Positions 1-35,546 of a DNA stretch of 35,722 nt are shown here, in pieces. This stretch comes from Clostridia bacterium (GTDB taxonomy: Bacteria; Bacillota; Clostridia; Oscillospirales; CAG-272): positions 1-35,722 of the forward strand of contig JAFTJZ010000086.1 in the NCBI GenBank assembly GCA_017456145.1. The letters are read 5' to 3'. A program made the translations under genes and the position numbers. Every line of letters begins with the position of its first letter. The first letter of the stretch is position 1. A model generated the notes under the pieces. That model was not told the DNA's origin, ran no database searches, and worked only from the letters and a program-made list of their open reading frames with translations.

Positions 1-3000
1 AGCATGACGTAAGCTACTCCTGCTGCGACGGTAGCTACAGCGTAACCCACACAATGAATCCCGCCACCGGCAAGTGCGACGACTGCGGTCTGGATATGGC
101 AGATGCAATCGTGACAACGGCAGGCGATACTCCCGTCGTGACCTACTATGCGACACTCGCAGAAGCCATCACCGCCGCCAAGAGCGCCACCGGCTCCACG
201 GTAAAGCTTCTTGATAGCGTTACGCTTTCCAACGCCATCCAAATCAGCGAAGGTCAGTTTACCATTGACCTGAACGGCAAGACAGTGACCTCCGAGGTCG
301 AGGATGCCGCTTTTGGCATCATTGACACCGCAGCAAACGTAACCATTACCAGCGCCGTGTCCGGCGGAAAGATCGAAGCAAAAGCATATTGCGTGTTTGC
401 ATCTGACGGTGGCACTGCCAAGGTAACAAACGTTGCCTTGCATTCGAACACCGGTACTTATACAGCTGGAGCAATGCGTGCAAACGCCGTGCTGACGCTG
501 AAAAACGTAACGATTACCACTGACAATCGTGGCGTATACGCGGGATACGGCGGCAAGGTAGAGATCCTTGGCACCAGTAGTGTCAAAGCTAATCAGTATG
601 ACATTGATTGCGACATTTATTCCGTCCTTACGGTAGGCGCAGGTGTCACCTTCCCCAACGGTCTGACAACGGAAAGCTCTATCTATGCCAAGCCGCTCAA
701 AGATATACTTGCCAACGGCATGGCATACTGGACGGGCGAAAACCAGATGGTTCAGGACGCCGACACCTATCAGATCGCCGGCACCGTAACCGTTCGTGCA
801 GCCTGCGCCCACAGCGACGCAAGCAAGTTTACTTACACCGCAGACGGTGCTACCATCACCGCCACCTGCACAAGCTGCAACAACACCGCAGGTAACGTCA
901 CAATAACCGTTGTCTCCACCGATCTTACCTACGACGGCAAAAAGAAAGAGCTGAAGGCAGAGAACACCATCCCCGGCGTAGAGGCACCCGCAATTACTTG
1001 CGCTACCGATCTGACGAGCGCAGGTACGCATACGGCAACCATCACTCTGGGCGGTAAAACCGCAACCCTTAACGTGACCATTGGCAAGGTAACTCTTAAA
1101 GCAAGTGATTTTACTTACACGGAGCCCACAGATCTTGTCTATAACGGCACGAAAAAGGAGGCTTCGGTAACCACTTCGCTTGTCGGCGTGGGAACCGTCA
1201 CCATTAAGTATTACAAGGACGGCGAAGAAGTAGCAAGCCCCACATACGCGGGTACGTACACCGTTAAGATCGACGTAGCCGAGAGCGCCAATAACAATGC
1301 GGTAACACTTGAAGTGGGCACCTTTGAGATCGAAAAGGCAACGCCTACCCTCACCGTCAAGTCTCCCATGACTTCCGTTCTCCCCGGCAACACCATTTTG
1401 CTCACCGTTACGGCAAATGACAGCGAGGTAAACAACTTCACCATTAACGCGGGCACCCTTTACACAGTTAACGGAATGAAGATCACGGTGTTCGATGATG
1501 CTGTGATCGGTCAGGACAAAATCACGGTTACGGTAACAAGCGCCGCAACCACCAACTATAACGAGGCTACGGCTACTATCACACTTGATGTCGGTATGGC
1601 TGACTTCTCGAGCGAGATCGCAGAGCTCAAAGAAAAGCTCGCGGCGCTTGAGGACAAATACCACCCGACAGCCGACGAGATAGACAAGATCAAGTCAGAC
1701 ATCAAGGCACTTGAAGGAGCAGATTCCGAGTTTAATTCCAAGCTTGCGGAAATGGTCAGCGATATCAGCAGAAAGCTCAGTGATCTTGAAAATGTCTACG
1801 CGACCAAGAAAGAGCTTAAAGATGCTGTCGACGATCTGAAAGAGCGCATAAACAGCAACGATACCGATATTTCCAGTATCAACAATACAATAGTAGAGAT
1901 CAACAATAAGATCGCAACTCTCGCGTCGCTCGATTACGTTGATAATGAGATAAAGTGGCTCGCGGATCTTATCGCTAATCTCACAGACCGCGTTACGACA
2001 AACGAAGGCAATATCAAGATAAACGCGGACGAGATCGCAAGCCTTAAGGAAAGTCTCGGAATCCTCAAGACAATTCTTGAGACAAAGGATGCCGAGCTTG
2101 CGGCGGATATCGCGGCGCTTGTGAATGCACTCGACAACCTTGAAGAAAGAGTCACGGCAAACGAGACTGCTATAGCGGAGCTTAAAGCAGCGACCGAAAC
2201 CCTTAATAATGCTATGCAGGAGCGTGACGCTGACCTCTCTAATGAGATCAAAGCCCTCAATGATGCTCTGACAAACGCAAATGCGGCTCTTGAAGCAACC
2301 GACGCGGCTAATAAGACCGAGCTTGAAGGAAAGATCACAGACGCACAGAACGCACTCAAAGCAGCTATTGACAATGTTCAGACCAACCTCGACAATGCAA
2401 AGGCTGACCTTGAAAGGGCTATCTTAGAGCTCGAAACGGCTACGCTGGAGCGTGAGGCTGACCTCTCTGACGAGATCAACAAACTCATTACAGCACTCGC
2501 ATCCGCACAGGCAGCTCTTGAACAGGCAGATGACGATAACAAGGCTGAGCTTGTAAAGAAGATTGAGGATGCAGATGCAGCACTCAACGCAGCTATCAAT
2601 GTAGTACAGAATAACCTCGACGATGCAAAAGCAGAGCTTGAAAAGGCTATCGCAGACGGCGATACCGCACTTGACGAAAAGATCACCAACCTCAATGCAG
2701 CACTCGAATCCGCAAAGGCAACTCTTGAACAGGCAGATGCCGATAACAAGTCAGAGCTTGTAAGCAAGATCGAAACCGCAGACGCTACACTCAGCGCAGC
2801 AATCGAGCAGGTGCAGAAGAACCTCGACGATGCGAAGGCTGAGCTTGACAATGCTATCGCAGATCTCGATGCGGCTATGCAGCAGGGTGACGCTGACCTC
2901 TCTGACGAGATCGCAAGCCTCAATGATGCTCTCGCATCCGCAAAGGCAACTCTTGAACATGCAGATGTCTATAACAAGGAAGAGCTTGTAAAGAAGATAG

Positions 3001-4418
3001 ACGATGCAGACGCGACTCTCAGCGCAGCAATCGAACAGGTCCAGCAGAACCTCGACGATGCGAAGGCTGAGCTAGACGATGCAGACGCGACTCTCAGCGC
3101 AGCAATCGAGCAGGTGCAGCAGAACCTCGACGATGCAAAGGCTGAGCTTGAAAAGGCAATCGCTGATGGTGATGCTGAGCTTGATGACAAGATCACAGCC
3201 CTCTATTATGCTCTCGCATACACAAAGGCAATTCTTGAACAGGCTGACATCGATAACAAGGAAGAGCTTGTAAAGAAGATTGACGATGCAGATGCAGCAC
3301 TCGATGCAGCAATCAAGGCGGTTCAGAAGAACCTCGACGATGCCAAGGCTGAGCTTGATACAGCTATCAAGAACGGCGACACCGCACTTGACGAAAAGAT
3401 CACCAACCTCAATGCAGCACTCGAATCCGCAAAGGCAGCTCTTGAAGCAACCGACGCGGCTAACAAGACCGAGCTTGAAGGAAAGATCGAAACCGCAGAC
3501 GCTACTCTCGACGCGGCAATCAAGGCGGTTCAGAAGAACCTCGACGATGCGAAGAACGAATTGCAGAATGCGATCAACGCAAACGAGACCGATATCGAAG
3601 ATAAGGTCGCGAAACTGAACGCGGCGCTCGAATCTGCAAAGACGGCTCTTGATGCTACCGTCACGGCAACCAAGACCGAGCTTGAAGGAAAGATCACAGA
3701 CGCACAGAACGCACTCCAAGCGGCTATTGACAATGTTCAGACCAACCTCGACAACGCGAAATCAGAGCTTGAAAAGGCTATCGCAGACCTCGATGCGGCT
3801 ATGAAACAGGGTGACGCTGACCTCTCTGATGAGATCGCAAACCTCAATGCTGCTCTCGCATCCGCAAAGGCGGCTCTTGAAAAGGCAGATGCTGACAACA
3901 AGGCAGAACTTGTAAGCAAGATCGAAACCGCAGACGCGACTCTCGACGCAGCGATCAAGGCGGTTCAGAAGAATCTTAGCGATGCGAAGGCTGAGCTTGA
4001 CAAGGCAATCGCTGATGGTGATGCTGAGCTTGATGCCAAGATCACAGCTCTGAATAAAGCTCTTGCAGCCGCGAAAGCAGCTCTTGAAACGGCAGACACC
4101 GTAAATAAATCCGAGCTGACAACCAAGATTGATGAAGCATACTCTTCTCTTGATTCGGCAGTCAAGGCGGTACAGAAGAATCTTGATGATTTGAAGGCAG
4201 CACTTGAAGCAAAGGATATCGAGCTTGCAAATAAAGATGTTGAGCTTGAAAACAAGGATATCGAGCTTGCAAATAAAGATGCTGAACTTGAAAACAAGGA
4301 TAGCGAGCTTCAAACCTTTATCATCATCGTGTGCGTCATTTCCGGCGTAGCATTCTGCGGATGCGGTACTCTCGCAGTATTCTACTTCATGGACAAAAGA
4401 AAAAGCTCTAAAAAATAA
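1..4418 (+). CDS. Giant coiled-coil surface protein, 5' partial at window edge
   Basis: The frame is already open at position 3 and has no stop before the first ATG (54), so the gene starts outside the window and that ATG is probably internal. From N to C one sees a cysteine-rich stretch (CCDG...CDDCG); a Gly/Thr/Asn-rich beta-helix-like region (about residues 30-230, counting from the ATG); two Ig-like MBG-type modules (about 280-500, YDGKKKEL and YNGTKKEA starts); a very long Ala/Glu/Lys/Asp coiled coil (about 510-1415) built from imperfect repeats of 69 or 76 residues; heptad tails of the type ELANKD; one transmembrane helix (about 1420-1445); and a basic KRKSSKK end. The inferred topology is extracellular stalk, C-terminal membrane anchor and short cytoplasmic tail. 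There is no LPXTG sorting signal. The function is unknown; adhesion or wall-spanning spacing is a guess. Confidence 0.85.
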   Translation, partial: HDVSYSCCDGSYSVTHTMNPATGKCDDCGLDMADAIVTTAGDTPVVTYYATLAEAITAAKSATGSTVKLLDSVTLSNAIQISEGQFTIDLNGKTVTSEVEDAAFGIIDTAANVTITSAVSGGKIEAKAYCVFASDGGTAKVTNVALHSNTGTYTAGAMRANAVLTLKNVTITTDNRGVYAGYGGKVEILGTSSVKANQYDIDCDIYSVLTVGAGVTFPNGLTTESSIYAKPLKDILANGMAYWTGENQMVQDADTYQIAGTVTVRAACAHSDASKFTYTADGATITATCTSCNNTAGNVTITVVSTDLTYDGKKKELKAENTIPGVEAPAITCATDLTSAGTHTATITLGGKTATLNVTIGKVTLKASDFTYTEPTDLVYNGTKKEASVTTSLVGVGTVTIKYYKDGEEVASPTYAGTYTVKIDVAESANNNAVTLEVGTFEIEKATPTLTVKSPMTSVLPGNTILLTVTANDSEVNNFTINAGTLYTVNGMKITVFDDAVIGQDKITVTVTSAATTNYNEATATITLDVGMADFSSEIAELKEKLAALEDKYHPTADEIDKIKSDIKALEGADSEFNSKLAEMVSDISRKLSDLENVYATKKELKDAVDDLKERINSNDTDISSINNTIVEINNKIATLASLDYVDNEIKWLADLIANLTDRVTTNEGNIKINADEIASLKESLGILKTILETKDAELAADIAALVNALDNLEERVTANETAIAELKAATETLNNAMQERDADLSNEIKALNDALTNANAALEATDAANKTELEGKITDAQNALKAAIDNVQTNLDNAKADLERAILELETATLEREADLSDEINKLITALASAQAALEQADDDNKAELVKKIEDADAALNAAINVVQNNLDDAKAELEKAIADGDTALDEKITNLNAALESAKATLEQADADNKSELVSKIETADATLSAAIEQVQKNLDDAKAELDNAIADLDAAMQQGDADLSDEIASLNDALASAKATLEHADVYNKEELVKKIDDADATLSAAIEQVQQNLDDAKAELDDADATLSAAIEQVQQNLDDAKAELEKAIADGDAELDDKITALYYALAYTKAILEQADIDNKEELVKKIDDADAALDAAIKAVQKNLDDAKAELDTAIKNGDTALDEKITNLNAALESAKAALEATDAANKTELEGKIETADATLDAAIKAVQKNLDDAKNELQNAINANETDIEDKVAKLNAALESAKTALDATVTATKTELEGKITDAQNALQAAIDNVQTNLDNAKSELEKAIADLDAAMKQGDADLSDEIANLNAALASAKAALEKADADNKAELVSKIETADATLDAAIKAVQKNLSDAKAELDKAIADGDAELDAKITALNKALAAAKAALETADTVNKSELTTKIDEAYSSLDSAVKAVQKNLDDLKAALEAKDIELANKDVELENKDIELANKDAELENKDSELQTFIIIVCVISGVAFCGCGTLAVFYFMDKRKSSKK
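2230..4200 (+). repeat. Imperfect tandem repeats coding the coiled coil
   Basis: Repeat units translate to the pattern K(A/S/E)ELV-KI-DA--L-AAI--VQ-NLDDAK-EL--AI, followed by a linker. I count 69 residues for one unit and 76 for the next. The 7-residue difference equals one heptad (LDAAMQQ-type insertion). DNA identity between units is high in places, for example around 2580-2700 and 3300-3420, so the array probably grows and shrinks by recombination. Confidence 0.8.
3000..3149 (+). repeat. 75-bp direct tandem duplication
   Basis: Copy 1 is 3000-3074 and copy 2 is 3075-3149. I count four mismatches in 75 positions, all within a DDADATLSAAIEQVQ-type segment of 25 residues. The duplication is in frame and sits inside the larger coiled-coil array, where it looks like a recent event. 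Confidence 0.9.
4215..4298 (+). repeat. 42-bp tandem repeat, two copies
   Basis: Copies 4215-4256 and 4257-4298 differ at two positions and encode two 14-residue units (DIELANKDVELENK and a near copy). They extend the coiled coil by exactly two heptads each, directly before the transmembrane helix. Confidence 0.9.
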
Positions 4419-26369: not shown

Positions 26370-27488
26370 TCATACACCACACTCCACGGCAATCATCGGC
26401 ACTGTCATCTCTTCACGCGTCATTCCTGCGTGTGCCGCACGAAACATATCTTGCGTCTTTTTTCCGACCTCAATACCGATATTGCTATATGCCGCTGCCA
26501 CATAATCACCGATAAAATCATCTGTAAGCGGGTGCGCCTTACCTACGCCAAACAATGCATGGCGTAGCACTTCTTCACGGGAAAATAAGTGATAACAATC
26601 TCCGAATGCTTGTTGAAACAAGCTCTCAAAACGATCATTCATTCCTTGCTTGACCCAAAACGTCAACGCACGCGCATCGATCGCGGGTCTGCGACGGATA
26701 CATTCGCACAATGCCGGATAATCGGATAAAAAACGCCACTGCACATCGATCAGCCCGTGATCTGCCGTAACCAAAACAAGTGTGTCCTTCAAATTGCGAC
26801 AAAGTGTTTCTACGGTGCTGTCAATTTCTGCAATCTGTGCTTTGATCGCCTCCGCGCTCACCCCGTGGTCGTGCATATCGTAATCAGGTTGCGGCCAATA
26901 TGCGTAAATATAGTTCTCTTTCTCCGTGCCACATAAACGAAGGATCTCACTGCAGATTTTCTCCAGGGATTCATAACGGGGCGTTCCATACGGCGAGAGC
27001 ATTTTCGCGCAAATACGCCCTTGTGTGGCAAGGCGGATCTTTTCCGTAATCGAAACCGTTGCGAGGTGACGGTTTCCGAGATGGTACGGTGCTGCTTGTT
27101 TCCCACCTGTTTCCGCCACGGTGTTTGGAAACACACTGACAACACTGTCAACCTCTCGGAAATAAAGGTCCCACCCAAGCCAACCATGTGATATTGGCGG
27201 TAACCCCGTTTGCATAGTGATCGTTGCCGCGGTAGTGGTCGCAGGAAACACCGAAGATACAGAGCTTATCAAATGCTGCCGCAAAAAGGAACCGGCAGGC
27301 AAGCCTATTTCAAGATTGTAGGTTCCAAGTCCGTCAAACAGCATGACAACCACATTTTTCGGTCTCTTTTCCAGCAGTATATCGACCTCCGGTAGCGTCG
27401 AATATTGACTTTCAGCCCCATAATAGTTCAAAACAGATGAGGTCAAAGATAACAGACTGCGATCATACTCCGGATATTGTAATGCCAT
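26370..27488 (-). CDS. Type I phosphodiesterase / alkaline phosphatase superfamily
   Basis: The protein has 372 residues and no signal peptide, so it acts in the cytosol. The two-metal core is complete: D52 in MLFDGLG, the Thr nucleophile in FPATTTAA (81-88), DYDMHDHG (202-209), TADHG (241-245) and the late AHAGMTREEM histidine. This fits the nucleotide pyrophosphatase/phosphodiesterase family (PF01663), which cleaves nucleotide or phospho-diester bonds. GGGAGG is 11-12 nt before the ATG. It follows the PRPP synthetase gene by 84 nt that hold a hairpin without a T run, so some read-through is likely. It is not BREX PglZ, which is much longer and has extra domains. Confidence 0.83.
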   Translation of the reverse strand: MALQYPEYDRSLLSLTSSVLNYYGAESQYSTLPEVDILLEKRPKNVVVMLFDGLGTYNLEIGLPAGSFLRQHLISSVSSVFPATTTAATITMQTGLPPISHGWLGWDLYFREVDSVVSVFPNTVAETGGKQAAPYHLGNRHLATVSITEKIRLATQGRICAKMLSPYGTPRYESLEKICSEILRLCGTEKENYIYAYWPQPDYDMHDHGVSAEAIKAQIAEIDSTVETLCRNLKDTLVLVTADHGLIDVQWRFLSDYPALCECIRRRPAIDARALTFWVKQGMNDRFESLFQQAFGDCYHLFSREEVLRHALFGVGKAHPLTDDFIGDYVAAAYSNIGIEVGKKTQDMFRAAHAGMTREEMTVPMIAVECGV

Positions 27489-29606: not shown

Positions 29607-29708
29607 GACATCACCTCCGTTCGGAAGACAAAAAATTTTCGTCGTGAATCATGCACAAATTGCTATACAAAATCACCAATCGCAAAGGTAAATATCTTTA
29701 TATAAAAA

Positions 29709-29732
29709 GTCGCCTGCCATAAGGCAAGCGAC
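29709..29732 (-). terminator. Terminator of the TerB-BrxD-Lhr operon
   Basis: GTCGC-C-TGCC and GGCA-A-GCGAC form a 9-bp stem with one mismatch and an ATAA loop; on the minus strand TTTTTAT follows. The plus side also has a T run. Confidence 0.75.
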
Positions 29733-29785
29733 CTATTTTTATATTCACATTACAAAACAGATGCTACGACACGTTAAAACACGGT

Positions 29786-32128
29786 TTAAGGAACAAACGG
29801 ATTTTCCGGATTCTCCAGCCATTCACGCTCCCAAGTAAAAATACGCTCCGTCACCTCATCCGTACGCAAGCGATCTTCGGCATATGCCCGACGCAAAAGA
29901 TCCAAGGGAATACAATCATCGTATTTATCAAACACGGGAATTTCCCCATGCTCAACCAGGGAAAGTCGGTCAATTCCCTCCTCTCTTACGATCTCGGCAA
30001 GTCGCATTACGAAGGCATCGCCATTTCCCATTTCCATCTTGAAGGTGATAAAGCAGCAGCCTTCATACTCAATACCGGAGATGCGCAGTTCTTGTGCGTG
30101 CTTTTTGATCAGCTTACGGCAAGTACGGAAGGAACGCGTTCCCAGCCACGGGAATAAGCACCAAGAATATCCGCCAAGATGAACCAGCGACCGCTGCAGC
30201 ATACCGGTATTTCTGGCTGTGTGTCGGGCAATTTCCAAGCGCACGCGCGCATTGTCCTTAAGATACGGATAAACGATGTCCTCCTCCAGAATGCGTTTCA
30301 TACGCTCAAGGATCTTCGTATGGATCTCCCCATAATCGCCCGGCCATGAGATTTCCATCTTTCCGTCCACACCATGAACATAGATCAGCTTATGAGAAAT
30401 ATCGACCTCCTCTACCTCCCAAACGCGTCCTGCAAGAGCAAAGCGATCCCCTACCGGAGGCGGTGCTGTAATGGTCCCGATCTCATCCGAGCCGCAACGC
30501 ACGGTATAGTCCTCCGTATCCTTAAAAACCGCGTAAAACTTGAAGGATTTGATCAACTGCTCACCGCGTAAGCCCACGATCAGCCCTTTTTCTTCGGTCA
30601 TCTCCAGATAATCCTGTTTGACCATTGAAATGATCAATTCGCGATAATCTTCTTTTTCCACGGAAGAAAACGGCGGCAATGAAAGAACCCTTTCGGCAAG
30701 TCGTTTCGGTGTCAATTCGCCCGATGCAGCAAGTGTACTTAAGGTCTGATGAAACAGGAGGCTCATCGGCATTTTGCGCAACAACGGCGGTTCAATAAAC
30801 CGTTCCTCAATATAAAGCTGCACGATGGCAATGGCGCGCAACAGCTCCCATGGCATCAGCTGTGGCAGCGGCGTATTGGGCAGCGGACTTTCCTCACGGA
30901 AGACCATCATCATTTCGGGTGGTTGTCCGCGACGCCCAGAGCGCCCAAGACGCTGCAAAAACGACGACACAGAGTGAGGGGATTGGCTTTGCAGCACTCG
31001 CTCCAATCGCCCGATGTCAATCCCCAGCTCCATAGTAACGGTCGCGCAGGTGACCGCATGAAATTCTTCGTCCTTCATCTTCATCTCCGCCTCTTCGCGG
31101 ATGGATGCAGATAGATTTCCATGGTGAATCAGGAAAATATCCCTCTCGCCTCGCCGCTTGGCGATCTGGCGGAAGGTTGCGGTCAGATATTCGGTCTCCT
31201 CACGGGAGTTGGAAAAGACCAGTGACTTCTGCCCCGTGACGCAATCGTACATAAATTCGTAACCTGCATCCAACTCGGCACGCACGGTTCTTTCCTGATT
31301 GGGTTCTTCCTCCTGCGCCGACGTGGCAATAACGGTTTCCTCTGTGGTCAGTGGCAGAGATTCCGGGTGTGTCGGCAGCATGGCAGGCGGACGAACGTCC
31401 TGCTTTTCATTCAGATTCTGAATATAGAAATGCTCCATTCCAAGACGCCAACGAATCTTTCCTTCGGCAAACATCGGCACATCGATGGGCAAAGAAGAAT
31501 TTCCACAAAGCCAATTGGCAGCGGAAGAAGGATCTCCAATGGTAGCGGAAAGTCCTACGCGGCGCACCTCATGCCCAATCAGACGGGTCAGGCGCTCGAT
31601 CTGGCAGATGATTTGATTGCCGCGATCAGAGCCCGTCAACGTATGAATTTCATCGATGACGATATAGCGAAGATCATAAAACAAACGCACAATATCGTTG
31701 GAGCGATTCATCAGCATGGACTCCAACGACTCGGGAGTAATCTGCAGGATTCCTTGCGGATTGGTCAGCAGCTTTTTTTTATGCGACATGGCAACGTCGC
31801 CATGCCAATGGGTCACGCGAATACCGCTCTCATCGAGAAGCTCGTCCATGCGGTTAAATTGGTCGTTGATCAAGCTTTTCAGGGGAGCAACGTAGATCAC
31901 ACCCACGCTCTGCGGCGGATTTTCCCACAATTCGGCAATGATCGGAAAGAAGGCTGCCTCGGTTTTGCCGCTCGCCGTTCCCGAGGTCAGAAGCAAATGA
32001 TGGTTGGTAAAAAACAGCGTCTGTGCTGCCGCGAGCTGCACCGCGCGCAGACTGTCCCAGTTGTGGCGATAAATATACTCACGGATAAAATCAGGAAAAC
32101 GGTCGAATATTTGATCAGCTTCGGTCAT
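29786..32128 (-). CDS. Lhr/BrxHI-like superfamily 2 DEAD/DEAH helicase
   Basis: Start 32128 is fixed by AAAGGAG seven nt upstream. The 780 residues have all SF2 motifs: I TSGTASGKTEA (48-58), Ia APLKSL, II DEIH (159-162), III SATIG (194-198), IV LVFSNSREETE, V TMELGIDIG, and VI LQRLGRSGRRG (391-401). The order and the C-terminal half resemble Lhr and the BREX type 2 helicase BrxHI. It should move on or unwind nucleic acid using ATP. It is the last gene of a three-gene operon, 92 nt after the BrxD-like ATPase, which suggests these two act on the same DNA. No nuclease domain is seen. Confidence is high for the helicase, lower for the subfamily. Confidence 0.88.
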   Translation of the reverse strand: MTEADQIFDRFPDFIREYIYRHNWDSLRAVQLAAAQTLFFTNHHLLLTSGTASGKTEAAFFPIIAELWENPPQSVGVIYVAPLKSLINDQFNRMDELLDESGIRVTHWHGDVAMSHKKKLLTNPQGILQITPESLESMLMNRSNDIVRLFYDLRYIVIDEIHTLTGSDRGNQIICQIERLTRLIGHEVRRVGLSATIGDPSSAANWLCGNSSLPIDVPMFAEGKIRWRLGMEHFYIQNLNEKQDVRPPAMLPTHPESLPLTTEETVIATSAQEEEPNQERTVRAELDAGYEFMYDCVTGQKSLVFSNSREETEYLTATFRQIAKRRGERDIFLIHHGNLSASIREEAEMKMKDEEFHAVTCATVTMELGIDIGRLERVLQSQSPHSVSSFLQRLGRSGRRGQPPEMMMVFREESPLPNTPLPQLMPWELLRAIAIVQLYIEERFIEPPLLRKMPMSLLFHQTLSTLAASGELTPKRLAERVLSLPPFSSVEKEDYRELIISMVKQDYLEMTEEKGLIVGLRGEQLIKSFKFYAVFKDTEDYTVRCGSDEIGTITAPPPVGDRFALAGRVWEVEEVDISHKLIYVHGVDGKMEISWPGDYGEIHTKILERMKRILEEDIVYPYLKDNARVRLEIARHTARNTGMLQRSLVHLGGYSWCLFPWLGTRSFRTCRKLIKKHAQELRISGIEYEGCCFITFKMEMGNGDAFVMRLAEIVREEGIDRLSLVEHGEIPVFDKYDDCIPLDLLRRAYAEDRLRTDEVTERIFTWEREWLENPENPFVP

Positions 32129-32220
32129 GCTCGATCTCCTTTCGTGAAATTGAAATAGGAGGAATATTGAATGAGGTAACGCTTGCATCGAATCATAAGG
32201 TCATAAGCTGTCATGTTGTT

Positions 32221-33657
32221 TCAAAAATCAATATCATTCGGATCAAATAAAGGGCGTGCGGGCGCAGACTCGCTCTCCTCTTTGGTGTTGACCGTCACTG
32301 TCGTACTCACTGTTGGCTGCTTTTCATCCTCGTCGGTTTTCAGCGTCACCGTTTTCTCCACAACACTTGCAAAGGTCGCGTCCTCATTCTGGAGCAGTAT
32401 ATTCAAGAGCGTCATATAATCGCGCAGCATCTCACGAGGGGTGATCATGCTGTCAGCTCCTGCACGGGAAAGACAGATTTTCAAAAATTGCTGCATTTCC
32501 TCATCGGTGATGCGGGCATCCCACTTGTAATACTGTGAATACAGACGGGTAATGCGCACGATCAGCGCCAGCAGCTCGTCGTCGCTCAAACGGCGCAAGC
32601 GGATCACGGGACCAATCAGATTCTTAAATCCCTCGGGAGTAAATCGGCTGTCGCACAGACGGCTGCGAAGTGCCTCATAGCTGAAAAGTCCGCGACGATT
32701 GTCTTCCAGAAACTGTGGCGTACCGCCAAGCACCAGCTCCAACCCCGGTGCACGTCCCTGCAGTGTATCGTTAAACATGGACAGAATCTTTTCATAGTTA
32801 TTCTCACGACTGACACGGTTGACGATCTTATAGAGATTGACACATTCATCGATAAACACCACAAGTCCACGGTATCCCATCAAGCGTACCAGTGCCGCCC
32901 ACAGCTTGAGAAAATCATACCAGTTATCATCATCGATAATCACCGAGACATGGAAACCAAGCGCATTTTTAGCCTCCGTTTTGGTAGAATATTCTCCTCG
33001 CAGCCATCGCATACAAGCGCTCTTTTTCTCTTCGTTTTCCATACTGCTCTCGCCGCGCCACGCACGGTAATAGGCCGTTACAACCTTGGTAAAATCAAAG
33101 CCACCGACTAAAAATTCCACCTCGCGCAGATGATCAAAAACCAAAGCGTTCATACGCTCCTCAAACGCCGTACTCTCGGGATCAAGACCTTCCCGCTCAA
33201 GCGTCGTCTGGAGCGTCGTCAGCCAGCGAGCCAGGATCCTCGGCAAAGCACCGCCGTCGGGCGAGGCTTTGGATGCCAGATTTTTCATCAGCTCGCGGTA
33301 AGTCGCCACACCGCTGCCGCCACTGCCATAAAGTCGACGTTCCGGAGAAAGATCGGCATCTGCCGTAATAAAATCACGCTCCATGGCATAACCGCGGATC
33401 AGCTGCATTAAAAAGCTTTTTCCACTGCCATAACGACCGATCAAAAAGCGCATTCCTCCCCCACCCTCGCTGACCGCCTCCAGATCGGAGAGCAGCGCGG
33501 CGATCTCATCCTGCCGACCGATGGCAATATAGGGAGCCCCCGAGCGCGGAACGACACCGGCAGAAACCGAGGCAAGCAGCGCACCGAGGATACGACGCGG
33601 AACGACGTTGACAGTGTCCTTTCGCGCCGGCACAGGATTCATTTCTTCGGACTTCAT
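32221..33657 (-). CDS. BrxD-like P-loop ATPase (BREX ATP-binding domain, formerly DUF2791)
   Basis: The protein has 478 residues. After RRILGALL and a Gly-rich stretch, Walker A GRYGSGKS lies at 74-81 and Walker B LVVFIDEC at 265-272, followed by NLYKIVN. A sensor-like LVLGGTPQF (308-316) and an arginine-rich helical part follow (RSRLCDSRF). This is the BrxC/BrxD-type AAA+ fold; BrxD of BREX type 2 has the same features. The C-terminal 60 residues are low-complexity and acidic (TLKTDEDEKQPTVSTTVTV). AAAGG lies 11 nt before the ATG. It starts 40 nt after the TerB_N gene and likely couples ATP to loading or remodelling DNA-bound partners such as the neighbouring helicase. Confidence 0.86.
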   Translation of the reverse strand: MKSEEMNPVPARKDTVNVVPRRILGALLASVSAGVVPRSGAPYIAIGRQDEIAALLSDLEAVSEGGGGMRFLIGRYGSGKSFLMQLIRGYAMERDFITADADLSPERRLYGSGGSGVATYRELMKNLASKASPDGGALPRILARWLTTLQTTLEREGLDPESTAFEERMNALVFDHLREVEFLVGGFDFTKVVTAYYRAWRGESSMENEEKKSACMRWLRGEYSTKTEAKNALGFHVSVIIDDDNWYDFLKLWAALVRLMGYRGLVVFIDECVNLYKIVNRVSRENNYEKILSMFNDTLQGRAPGLELVLGGTPQFLEDNRRGLFSYEALRSRLCDSRFTPEGFKNLIGPVIRLRRLSDDELLALIVRITRLYSQYYKWDARITDEEMQQFLKICLSRAGADSMITPREMLRDYMTLLNILLQNEDATFASVVEKTVTLKTDEDEKQPTVSTTVTVNTKEESESAPARPLFDPNDIDF

Positions 33658-33697
33658 ATTTCATCAAACCTTTCGTTGTAAATTTCAAATCACAATT

Positions 33698-35485
33698 CTA
33701 CTCAATTGCAAGCATGATACGAATATCGTCGCGATATTCTTCTATGACGACAAACGCACCGTTCTCCCCCTCCTCAAGAAGGATATCTCCCATCGTGTTC
33801 GCCGCAATCTCGTTGATCTCATCTGCCAACATTTCCGGCATCTTGCCAATTTCCCGACAATATTTTCTTTGCATCGCCACATCCTTATGATACGCGCTGC
33901 GCAAAAACGGCAGCATCGCAGCAGAAAACGGCGAAGACGTCTCTGCTTGATCTTCTGCCTCCTCGGGGGCAGCGGGCGGGGCGTCATATGCCAGGGGCTT
34001 TTCGATGGACGTTTCCGGCAAAGAGGCAAAATCCTCAGCCTGTGCAGATAAATCCTCTTCCTCAAATGCCTCCACAAGTCTCTTCGTCGTATCCCACGAC
34101 AATTCTTCAATACGCGCTGCTTGCTCGGATGACATCGGCGTATCGGGCAGATCATACAGCTTTTCATAATCGGGGCGAACGGTAGCAGTTCCCTCCCCCC
34201 TGCTGTTTTTGGGAAATGCCTTGGCAAAATATTCGTTCAGAATGTTTTTTGCCGGCTCAGGCAGTGCGTAAATGGAAAGTCTGGACTTATATCCAAGCAC
34301 GGCACGGAGCTTATTTTCGGCATACTTGACGACATCCGTGATAAAGAAACGCAATTCATGTGAACGGGAGAAGGAACGATAACGCACCTCAATCTTATAT
34401 TTGATGCGATAAGAACACAGCGCACCTACAAAGGTATCTCTTGTAAGTGTGGAGGTCTGCATTTTCATATCGGAGAACAAAGAGTCGCCATGTGTAATCG
34501 ATTGCAACACACACTGCAGCGCAGCAGGAATATGACGGTCAAATGCCGCTGCAATCTCGCCACTTGATGCATACGCACGGCTCTTTTTATAATCATAATT
34601 AGAGCAACAATTGAGATATATCGCTGTATCAGCGATGTCGCCGACACAGCTGTGATTGACGTAAAACTCCCGCAGTTGGCACTCTGCGGTAAGTTTTCGC
34701 ATAACCCCCCCAAGCTGTGCTGCAGGAACCGGCAAGCGATATAAAAGACAATAATCACAGATCCATTCGCCAAGATATCGGTCAAGCAACGGATAATCCT
34801 CCCGATAATTCATCCAGATACCGCACAGCAGCTCTAAACCTCGCGCGGGCGGAATCTGATCAGGCAGATTGATGATTTCAAAGATCAAAAGGAAAATGTA
34901 GCTGTGATCGGTGCGCGGGTACTCCCCTTGATATACCAACTCACGCAGATACAGGTACCACGCCAGCTGCGATCGGTTCATTTGATCATACTGCGGCATA
35001 TAGGAAAAGAATGAAACAGATTCGCAGCGTTCTCCCTTGACGCCAAATAGCTCCTTGGCAGTATGACAAAATCGCTCGTAATACGGAAATTGATTTTTCC
35101 ACGGATGGAGCGTAACCTCCTCAATAAGCGGATGATCGGGTTTATAAACGACCGGCTCTTTGGCACTCTGCACACCCGTCCCCCCCTCTGCAGCGCTGTT
35201 TTTTTGCTCATAGGAGGGGTCTGCCGCCTTCCGTAAGGGAATTGCCGCATCAGCATACATTTCGCTCATACGGACGTTTCTGACCGCCTGCGTGCGCTCT
35301 CCGTTCTCCTGTTTTACCTGTGGGGTCGAATCCGACACCTGTATTTCGGCAGTCGAGGTATCAAACGTACGAGTTGGTGCCGTGTAGCGCTTTTTCGGCG
35401 CGATGGCAAGAGATGAAATATCCCAGAACTCATCCAGCTCATTTTGCCGTGCGTTCATATCTTTTTTATCGTTATATTCAGGCAT
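33698..35485 (-). CDS. TerB_N / TerB_C domain protein
   Basis: Start 35485 is chosen from GGAGG eight nt upstream; an ATG six codons earlier lacks a site. The first 110 residues are disordered and Ser/Thr/Glu-rich. A TerB_N-type helical domain (about 125-330) follows, with MNRSQLAWYLYLRELVYQGEYP and DHSYIFLLIFEIINL as its hallmark. The last part (about 430-595) fits TerB_C: IEELSWDTTKRLVEAFEEED, a linker rich in Pro and Glu, and EINEIAANTMGDILLEEGENG before EEYRDDIRIML. The acidic residues may bind metal. No central TerB domain is clear. First gene of the operon; probably the adaptor or DNA-sensing part of the module. Confidence 0.78.
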   Translation of the reverse strand: MPEYNDKKDMNARQNELDEFWDISSLAIAPKKRYTAPTRTFDTSTAEIQVSDSTPQVKQENGERTQAVRNVRMSEMYADAAIPLRKAADPSYEQKNSAAEGGTGVQSAKEPVVYKPDHPLIEEVTLHPWKNQFPYYERFCHTAKELFGVKGERCESVSFFSYMPQYDQMNRSQLAWYLYLRELVYQGEYPRTDHSYIFLLIFEIINLPDQIPPARGLELLCGIWMNYREDYPLLDRYLGEWICDYCLLYRLPVPAAQLGGVMRKLTAECQLREFYVNHSCVGDIADTAIYLNCCSNYDYKKSRAYASSGEIAAAFDRHIPAALQCVLQSITHGDSLFSDMKMQTSTLTRDTFVGALCSYRIKYKIEVRYRSFSRSHELRFFITDVVKYAENKLRAVLGYKSRLSIYALPEPAKNILNEYFAKAFPKNSRGEGTATVRPDYEKLYDLPDTPMSSEQAARIEELSWDTTKRLVEAFEEEDLSAQAEDFASLPETSIEKPLAYDAPPAAPEEAEDQAETSSPFSAAMLPFLRSAYHKDVAMQRKYCREIGKMPEMLADEINEIAANTMGDILLEEGENGAFVVIEEYRDDIRIMLAIE

Positions 35486-35517: not shown

Positions 35518-35546
35518 ATTATAGCACAAGATATGATGCTTGTCAA
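35518..35546 (-). promoter_or_regulatory. Perfect sigma-A promoter of the TerB-BrxD-Lhr operon
   Basis: Minus strand TTGACA (35546-35541), a 17-nt spacer, and TATAAT (35523-35518). An exact consensus match, 32 nt before the start codon, so expression is probably constant and high. Confidence 0.88.

What the first reader, a model, noticed from the sequence alone, without database searches (positions are those of the whole stretch)
29786..35485. Three-gene TerB_N/TerB_C - BrxD-like ATPase - Lhr/BrxHI-like helicase module
Three adjacent genes share one strand, short gaps (40 and 92 nt), one perfect promoter (35518-35546) and one terminator (29709-29732). The ATPase and helicase are the type seen in BREX type 2, but PglX, PglZ and BrxA/B-type genes are absent. 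TerB_N/TerB_C domains were linked to DNA processing by comparative genomics (my recollection of the Ter-domain literature), but the activity is unknown. It may be a stand-alone anti-phage or DNA-repair complex, with the TerB protein as sensor or adaptor. The consensus promoter argues for constant expression, closer to housekeeping surveillance than an induced island.
Basis: partly seen in the sequence, partly recalled or inferred. Interest (0 to 1): 0.7.

Follow-up and report, generated by a model that had tools for sequence, protein, structure and literature searches.

The report
Vertically inherited Shango anti-phage gene set
The three genes are a Shango anti-phage system, a published kind, but in this family of bacteria the set is passed down much like an ordinary chromosomal gene and its third gene often sits elsewhere in the genome.

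Summary
In detail: three same-strand genes at 29786-35485, gaps 40 and 92 nt, a perfect promoter and a terminator. They are a Shango system (SngA-SngB-SngC): each protein hits its own PADLOC model far above the BREX models.

What is new lies in the relatives. In 146 species of the window's family all three genes occur in 103, none in 38, some in 5; a type I restriction domain is in 39. SngB and SngC trees agree with rpoB nearly as well as recA does. SngC lies more than 5 kb from SngB in 34 of 104 genomes with both, and this state follows the rpoB tree. A near-perfect promoter stands before SngA in 49 of 60 readable loci. SngA has no recognisable TerB domain (0 of 52), as in Paenibacillus but unlike E. 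coli; its C-terminus is modelled as a winged helix.

Verdict: a new variant of a known system, resident and probably always expressed. Its function here is inferred.

The parts
33698..35485 (-). sngA: TerB_N/TerB_C protein, 595 aa, no recognisable TerB (PF05099) domain; N-terminal FWDI motif; C-terminal winged helix in the model
   Evidence: PADLOC SngA 1.8e-52; Pfam TerB_N 3.5e-11, TerB_C 3e-6; AlphaFold2 mean pLDDT 81; winged-helix matches to 515-595
32221..33657 (-). sngB: BrxC/BrxD-type AAA ATPase, 478 aa, Walker A GRYGSGKS, conserved C-terminal tip (codons 32224-32247)
   Evidence: PADLOC SngB 3.5e-162, BrxD 2e-48; Walker A in 68 of 68 family SngB examined; tip in 103 of 114 distinct SngB
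29786..32128 (-). sngC: SF2 DEAD/DEAH helicase of the BrxHI/Lhr type, 780 aa
   Evidence: PADLOC SngC 1.5e-236, BrxHI 2.6e-125; motif I in 65 of 65 and DExH in 62 of 65 family SngC examined
35518..35546 (-). sigma-A type promoter, TTGACA-17-TATAAT, extended -10
   Evidence: 12/12; 49 of 60 readable relatives have 11 or 12 of 12, all 49 with a 17-nt spacer, against 26% of 255 other upstream regions
29707..29734 (-). intrinsic-terminator-like hairpin downstream of sngC
   Evidence: 12 pairs, 7 GC, then T-run

Best explanation
The operon is a Shango system of a clade that has become a resident of the chromosome in one family of bacteria (unnamed here; its closest named relatives are Clostridia metagenome genomes, mostly from ruminant guts). 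Shown here by computation: family membership, joint presence and absence, mostly vertical inheritance, changes of linkage that follow the tree, a conserved strong promoter sequence. Inferred: SngA binds DNA through its C-terminal winged helix and, with SngB (an AAA ATPase of the BrxC/BrxD kind) and SngC (an SF2 helicase of the BrxHI/SngC kind), forms one complex held together partly by short peptides (the N-terminal FWDI helix of SngA and the C-terminal tip of SngB). It is present at a steady level, recognises a feature of replicating foreign DNA, and SngB and SngC use ATP to remodel or block that DNA. The fast-evolving SngA would be the part that meets the foreign partner.
Confidence: 0.62

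Rival explanations
1. Domesticated host function: in this family the set has become a genome-maintenance machine (replication-fork, plasmid or transposon control), and phage defence is secondary or lost.
For: Mostly vertical descent, one copy in nearly all carriers, flanks without recognised defence genes, changed linkage, conserved promoter; two genomes of one genus keep SngC without SngA and SngB.
Against: Native SngB is missing from all sampled genomes in 12 of 45 multi-genome genera, so it is dispensable; SngA evolves fast, as expected of a partner in conflict.
Confidence: 0.18
2. Ordinary mobile Shango operon, acquired recently by this genome as part of a defence island.
For: Elsewhere Shango-type SngB is on plasmids (684 of 72,556 records, 541 of them conjugative) and Shango sits in hotspots (PMC10250203, passages); five family members carry a divergent SngB lineage that nests among other families; one locus without nearby SngC has a transposase-like frame (L047, my reading).
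Against: Window's SngB groups with its genus-mates in the tree and 5 of 6 genomes of the genus have it, itself included; no defence gene recognised among the 20 neighbours scanned with Pfam or the 10 with PADLOC; no neighbour family recurs in more than 7 of 66 loci; no phage record matches at E 1e-20.
Confidence: 0.08
3. Reduced BREX type 2 remnant (BrxD plus BrxHI) with an unrelated TerB protein.
For: SngB hits BrxD (2e-48) and SngC hits BrxHI (2.6e-125); both are homologous.
Against: Shango models score far higher (538 against 164 bits, 786 against 417); PglZ hits in 7 of 146 family genomes, 5 over cut-off, the window's own being a phosphodiesterase; BrxD equivalog cut-off not reached (162 against 350).
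Confidence: 0.03

Closest known systems
Shango (SngABC), tested by others in P. aeruginosa PA14 and E. coli
   Same: Same three families, same order, adjacent genes, catalytic motifs of ATPase and helicase kept
   Different: SngA 595 aa with TerB_N and TerB_C only, where E. coli plasmid SngA (769 aa) also has PF05099 TerB; this absence is shared with the Paenibacillus SngA and with the six SngA of other families of the order in the alignment, so it is not special to this family. SngB 38-51% identical to the listed plasmid SngB, SngC 29% to the E. coli plasmid SngC. Gene gaps of 40 and 92 nt instead of 3 nt and an overlap. SngC unlinked in many relatives; mostly vertical descent
BREX type 2 (BrxD, BrxHI)
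   Same: Homologous ATPase and helicase
   Different: No PglX, PglZ, BrxA or BrxB found beside it; scores far below the Shango models
Lhr and ligase-associated DEXH helicases
   Same: SF2 helicase core, weak Lhr winged-helix match
   Different: TIGR04121 212 bits against a cut-off of 850; Lhr WH below its Pfam cut-off
Highly conserved defence systems ('core defensome')
   Same: Defence genes kept in nearly all members of a taxon (PMC13064858, passages read: at least 90% of the genomes of a species)
   Different: Here the conservation is weaker (about 70% of species) but spans genera and a family, with changed linkage; that paper names Shango as overrepresented in prophages

Membership tests
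Shango | SngA-type protein with TerB-like domains | tested here: met
   PADLOC SngA 1.8e-52; TerB_N and TerB_C above Pfam cut-offs
Shango | TerB domain proper (PF05099), the domain listed for Shango in PMC10952713 (passage) | tested here: not met
   0 of 52 aligned SngA match it at E 0.01. E. coli and Polymorphobacter plasmid SngA do, the Paenibacillus SngA does not, though PADLOC calls that one SngA too; so I do not treat the domain as defining
Shango | SngB ATPase | tested here: met
   3.5e-162, profile positions 5-425 of 439
Shango | SngC helicase | tested here: met
   1.5e-236, profile positions 4-714 of 720
Shango | Three genes together in one operon | tested here: met
   Window: yes. Relatives with both: SngB and SngC on one contig within 4 kb in 60 of 104, more than 5 kb apart in 34, undecided in 10
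Shango | Anti-phage activity | not testable with these tools
   Needs an experiment
BREX | PglZ and PglX | tested here: not met
   PglZ: the only hit in this genome is a type I phosphodiesterase. PglX: not seen among 20 neighbours; not sought genome-wide
Lhr | Lhr winged-helix domain and curated equivalog score | tested here: not met
   PF19306 19.2 bits, cut-off 27; TIGR04121 212, cut-off 850

The most novel reading that the evidence does not exclude
An anti-phage system has been domesticated in one bacterial family into a vertically inherited, constitutively expressed complex whose genes no longer need to be linked, working as a general chromosome or replicon surveillance machine. Programs that demand co-located genes (so I recall of the usual ones) would miss about a third of its carriers (34 of 104).
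Probability: 0.27. Interest if true: 0.75.

Novelty: new variant of a known kind. Interest (0 to 1): 0.48.

Why it matters
Defence systems are usually found in fast-turning islands. Here one of unknown mechanism is inherited largely with the species tree over dozens of genera, and its three parts stay together in presence even where they have come apart in the genome. That is evidence, independent of linkage, that the three proteins act together, and it gives a natural comparison (mobile-looking against resident Shango within one family) for asking what drives a defence system to settle. It also points to a blind spot of linkage-based annotation.

Tried and rejected
BREX remnant: rejected on scores and on the missing PglZ and neighbours. 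An effector gene between SngB and SngC: in 9 loci without a close SngC I read the frames by eye, without a family search, and saw glycosidase-, PHP-, membrane-transporter- and aldolase-like frames, some unknown ones, and one transposase-like frame (L047), no evident effector. Conserved neighbourhood: none (at most 7 of 66 loci, 18 of which are under 12 kb long). Exclusion between Shango and HsdR_N: none (25 of 105 against 14 of 41, p 0.22). TerB loss as a mark of domestication: I first read it so and withdrew it, because the six SngA of other families in the alignment and the Paenibacillus SngA lack the domain too; for this I lowered the rival 'domesticated' and the novel case slightly. SSB-tail mimicry: the SngB tip resembles the host SSB end (29 of 30 SSB loci end in acidic residues then [LF]PF, 24 of them DDDLPF), but proline at -2 is 0 of 114, so I keep it only as a docking peptide. 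Solved relatives: none for SngB at E 0.01; for SngA only MarR-type hits at E 0.05, in the same stretch as the winged helix; Foldseek of the SngA model gave no match at E 0.001, which does not show that the fold is new. A separate model of the SngA core (alignment A2; job) had not finished when I stopped asking. Viral contigs: no relative, but that scan used the window's own peptides and reaches only close kin.

Literature: ten searches and passages of nine papers (with 123, 120) showed no mechanism for Shango (one review lists it as unknown) and no report of family-level vertical inheritance or of a split. Other listed papers that name Shango were not opened, and the library lacks most subscription papers; Millman et al. 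2022 and Anantharaman et al. 2012 are known to me only by recall and by citation.

Rows dropped or patterns changed: 8 of 114 SngC hits left out as weak; 85 genomes had full SngB, SngC and rpoB, 68 of them were used in trees, plus 12 genomes without SngB; 2 of 40 recA genomes lacked an extracted SngC; in the tip counts L119, L123 and L145 were set aside, L123 for a wrong frame end, the others because low identity put them in the wrong group, and the 114 include 4 SngB of other families of the order. The tip pattern was chosen after looking: a stricter first pattern gave 67 of 131 and 0 of 34. The FWDI pattern likewise: a stricter one gave 83 of 122 (short loci included) and 1 of 17. 6 of 66 loci had no readable SngA upstream and starts were estimated; 16 of 66 loci were left out of the identity comparison.
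Full report
What is there. Three minus-strand genes at 33698-35485, 32221-33657 and 29786-32128, with gaps of 40 and 92 nt, a 12-of-12 promoter with a 17-nt spacer and an extended -10 (35546-35518), a ribosome site, and a terminator-like hairpin at 29734-29707.

What it is. Each protein hits its own model in PADLOC: SngA 1.8e-52, SngB 3.5e-162, SngC 1.5e-236; for SngB and SngC the BREX models come second (BrxD 2e-48, BrxHI 2.6e-125). This is the Shango system. In P. aeruginosa PA14 a TerB-like protein, an ATPase and a helicase cloned together reduced plating of many phages 10-100 fold, not of all tested, and the same paper says that Shango had been found in E. coli islands (PMC10250203, passages only). 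A helicase tree in the Hachiman paper puts SngC in a possible clade with BrxHI, DruE and DpdJ (PMC12278908, passages only). Plasmid Shango loci in E. coli, Salmonella, Paenibacillus and Polymorphobacter show the same gene order. Catalytic motifs are kept in the family: Walker A in 68 of 68 SngB, motif I in 65 of 65 and DExH in 62 of 65 SngC.

How it is inherited. In 146 species of the window's family, SngB is in 105, SngA in 105, SngC in 114 of which I count 106; rpoB is in 136, recA in 137, HsdR_N in 39, 37 of them over its cut-off, PglZ in 7. In a phylum sample SngB has a hit in 50 of 398, of which 22, the window's genome included, exceed 500 bits. All three genes are present in 103, none in 38, some in 5. 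Five of the 105 SngB are a divergent lineage (G011, G013, G080, G125, G141; 44-49% identical to the window's SngB) that nests among other families; three of their four genera hold sisters without any SngB. Without them, native SngB is in 100 genomes of 51 genera, and of 45 genera with two or more genomes 28 are all-present, 12 none and 5 mixed, against 25.9 mixed after shuffling (least 15 of 5000); HsdR_N in the same genera gives 19 mixed against 23.6 (least 15 of 2000).

Trees. With 68 genomes the SngB and rpoB trees share 24 of 65 splits (at most 2 in 200 relabellings), 21 of the 29 rpoB splits with support of 95 or more recur, distance correlation is 0.46 (0.61 without the five divergent ones), and 32 of 33 genomes with a genus-mate in the set have one as nearest SngB (33 of 33 for rpoB). 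A control with recA in 38 of the same genomes: rpoB-recA 13 of 35 splits, rpoB-SngB 11, rpoB-SngC 9; correlations 0.59, 0.60, 0.60; of well-supported SngC splits 8 of 13 recur in rpoB (recA 8 of 9, SngB 8 of 9). Identity in these genomes is 74% rpoB, 75% recA, 65% SngB, 67% SngC. In a wider tree 24 SngB of the family form one clade (support 96), beside clades made each of one other family of the order (f6, f16, f17). These are single-gene trees of modest resolution; I claim agreement near that seen for recA, not absence of transfer.

The split. SngA and SngB are adjacent in 96 of 104 genomes with both. SngB and SngC are within 700 bp in 52 of 104, on one contig 0.9-3.8 kb apart in 8, and on different contigs in 44. 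Using positions and contig lengths, 34 of these 44 are more than 5 kb apart, in 22 genera, and 10 are undecided; one genus only has both states. On the rpoB tree the state needs 5 changes (19 on average after shuffling, 0 of 500 as low) for the 65 of 80 genomes that could be labelled. So the parts stay together in presence although linkage no longer forces it.

Expression and setting. Of 60 readable loci among 66, 49 have an 11- or 12-of-12 promoter upstream of SngA, all 49 with a 17-nt spacer and 48 with the extended -10, against 26% of 255 other upstream regions in the same loci. Of 20 window neighbours scanned with Pfam, those with matches include argininosuccinate synthase and lyase, ribose-phosphate pyrophosphokinase, an rRNA methylase, polysaccharide deacetylases and a nitroreductase; three have no match. 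No neighbour recurs in more than 7 of 66 loci, and the recurring ones that I recognise by eye are metabolic or housekeeping genes. The PADLOC scan of 10 window neighbours gave weak hits or hits of a coiled-coil protein. Sequence upstream of sngA beyond the window's end was not read.

Reading. The best-supported account is a Shango variant that is resident, probably always expressed and mostly vertically inherited. That it still acts on phage DNA is inferred from its kin, from intact catalytic motifs and from the fast SngA; that SngA binds DNA is inferred from a middling structural match; that the two terminal peptides dock the complex is inferred from their conservation. A species-level 'core defensome' is already in print, and that paper names Shango as overrepresented in prophages (PMC13064858, passages); I found no paper with family-level inheritance or the split in the searches listed under Tried and rejected.

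Noticed in passing
SngB C-terminus, window 32224-32247, and relatives: Acidic-hydrophobic tip at the free C-terminus after a variable linker, in most Shango SngB seen (not in the E. coli and Salmonella plasmid ones); in this clade it resembles, without the proline, the host SSB end DDDLPF.
   Followed up: partly
Genomes G025 and G130 (genus g21): SngC open frame without SngA and SngB hits: a lone helicase left after loss, or with a role of its own.
   Followed up: no
Genomes G011, G013, G080, G125, G141: A second, divergent Shango lineage in the same family, linked genes and mostly patchy presence, as if acquired by transfer.
   Followed up: partly
window 26370-27488: Weak PglZ-like match in a type I phosphodiesterase; could be mistaken for a BREX gene in automatic annotation.
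   Followed up: yes
window 54-4418: Long coiled-coil-type protein (1454 aa) with hits to LmuB (2.4e-18), JetC and ZorA models; probably only coiled-coil similarity.
   Followed up: no
G107 and G133 SngA, G216 SngB: Stops inside the gene (1 TGA, 1 TAA, 2 TAG) in a few relatives: decay or assembly errors.
   Followed up: no
plasmid collection; L330-L333: SngB-like genes are on 684 of 72,556 plasmid records, 449 of them Klebsiella and 144 Salmonella, 541 conjugative by typing; four were opened and are SngABC loci.
   Followed up: partly
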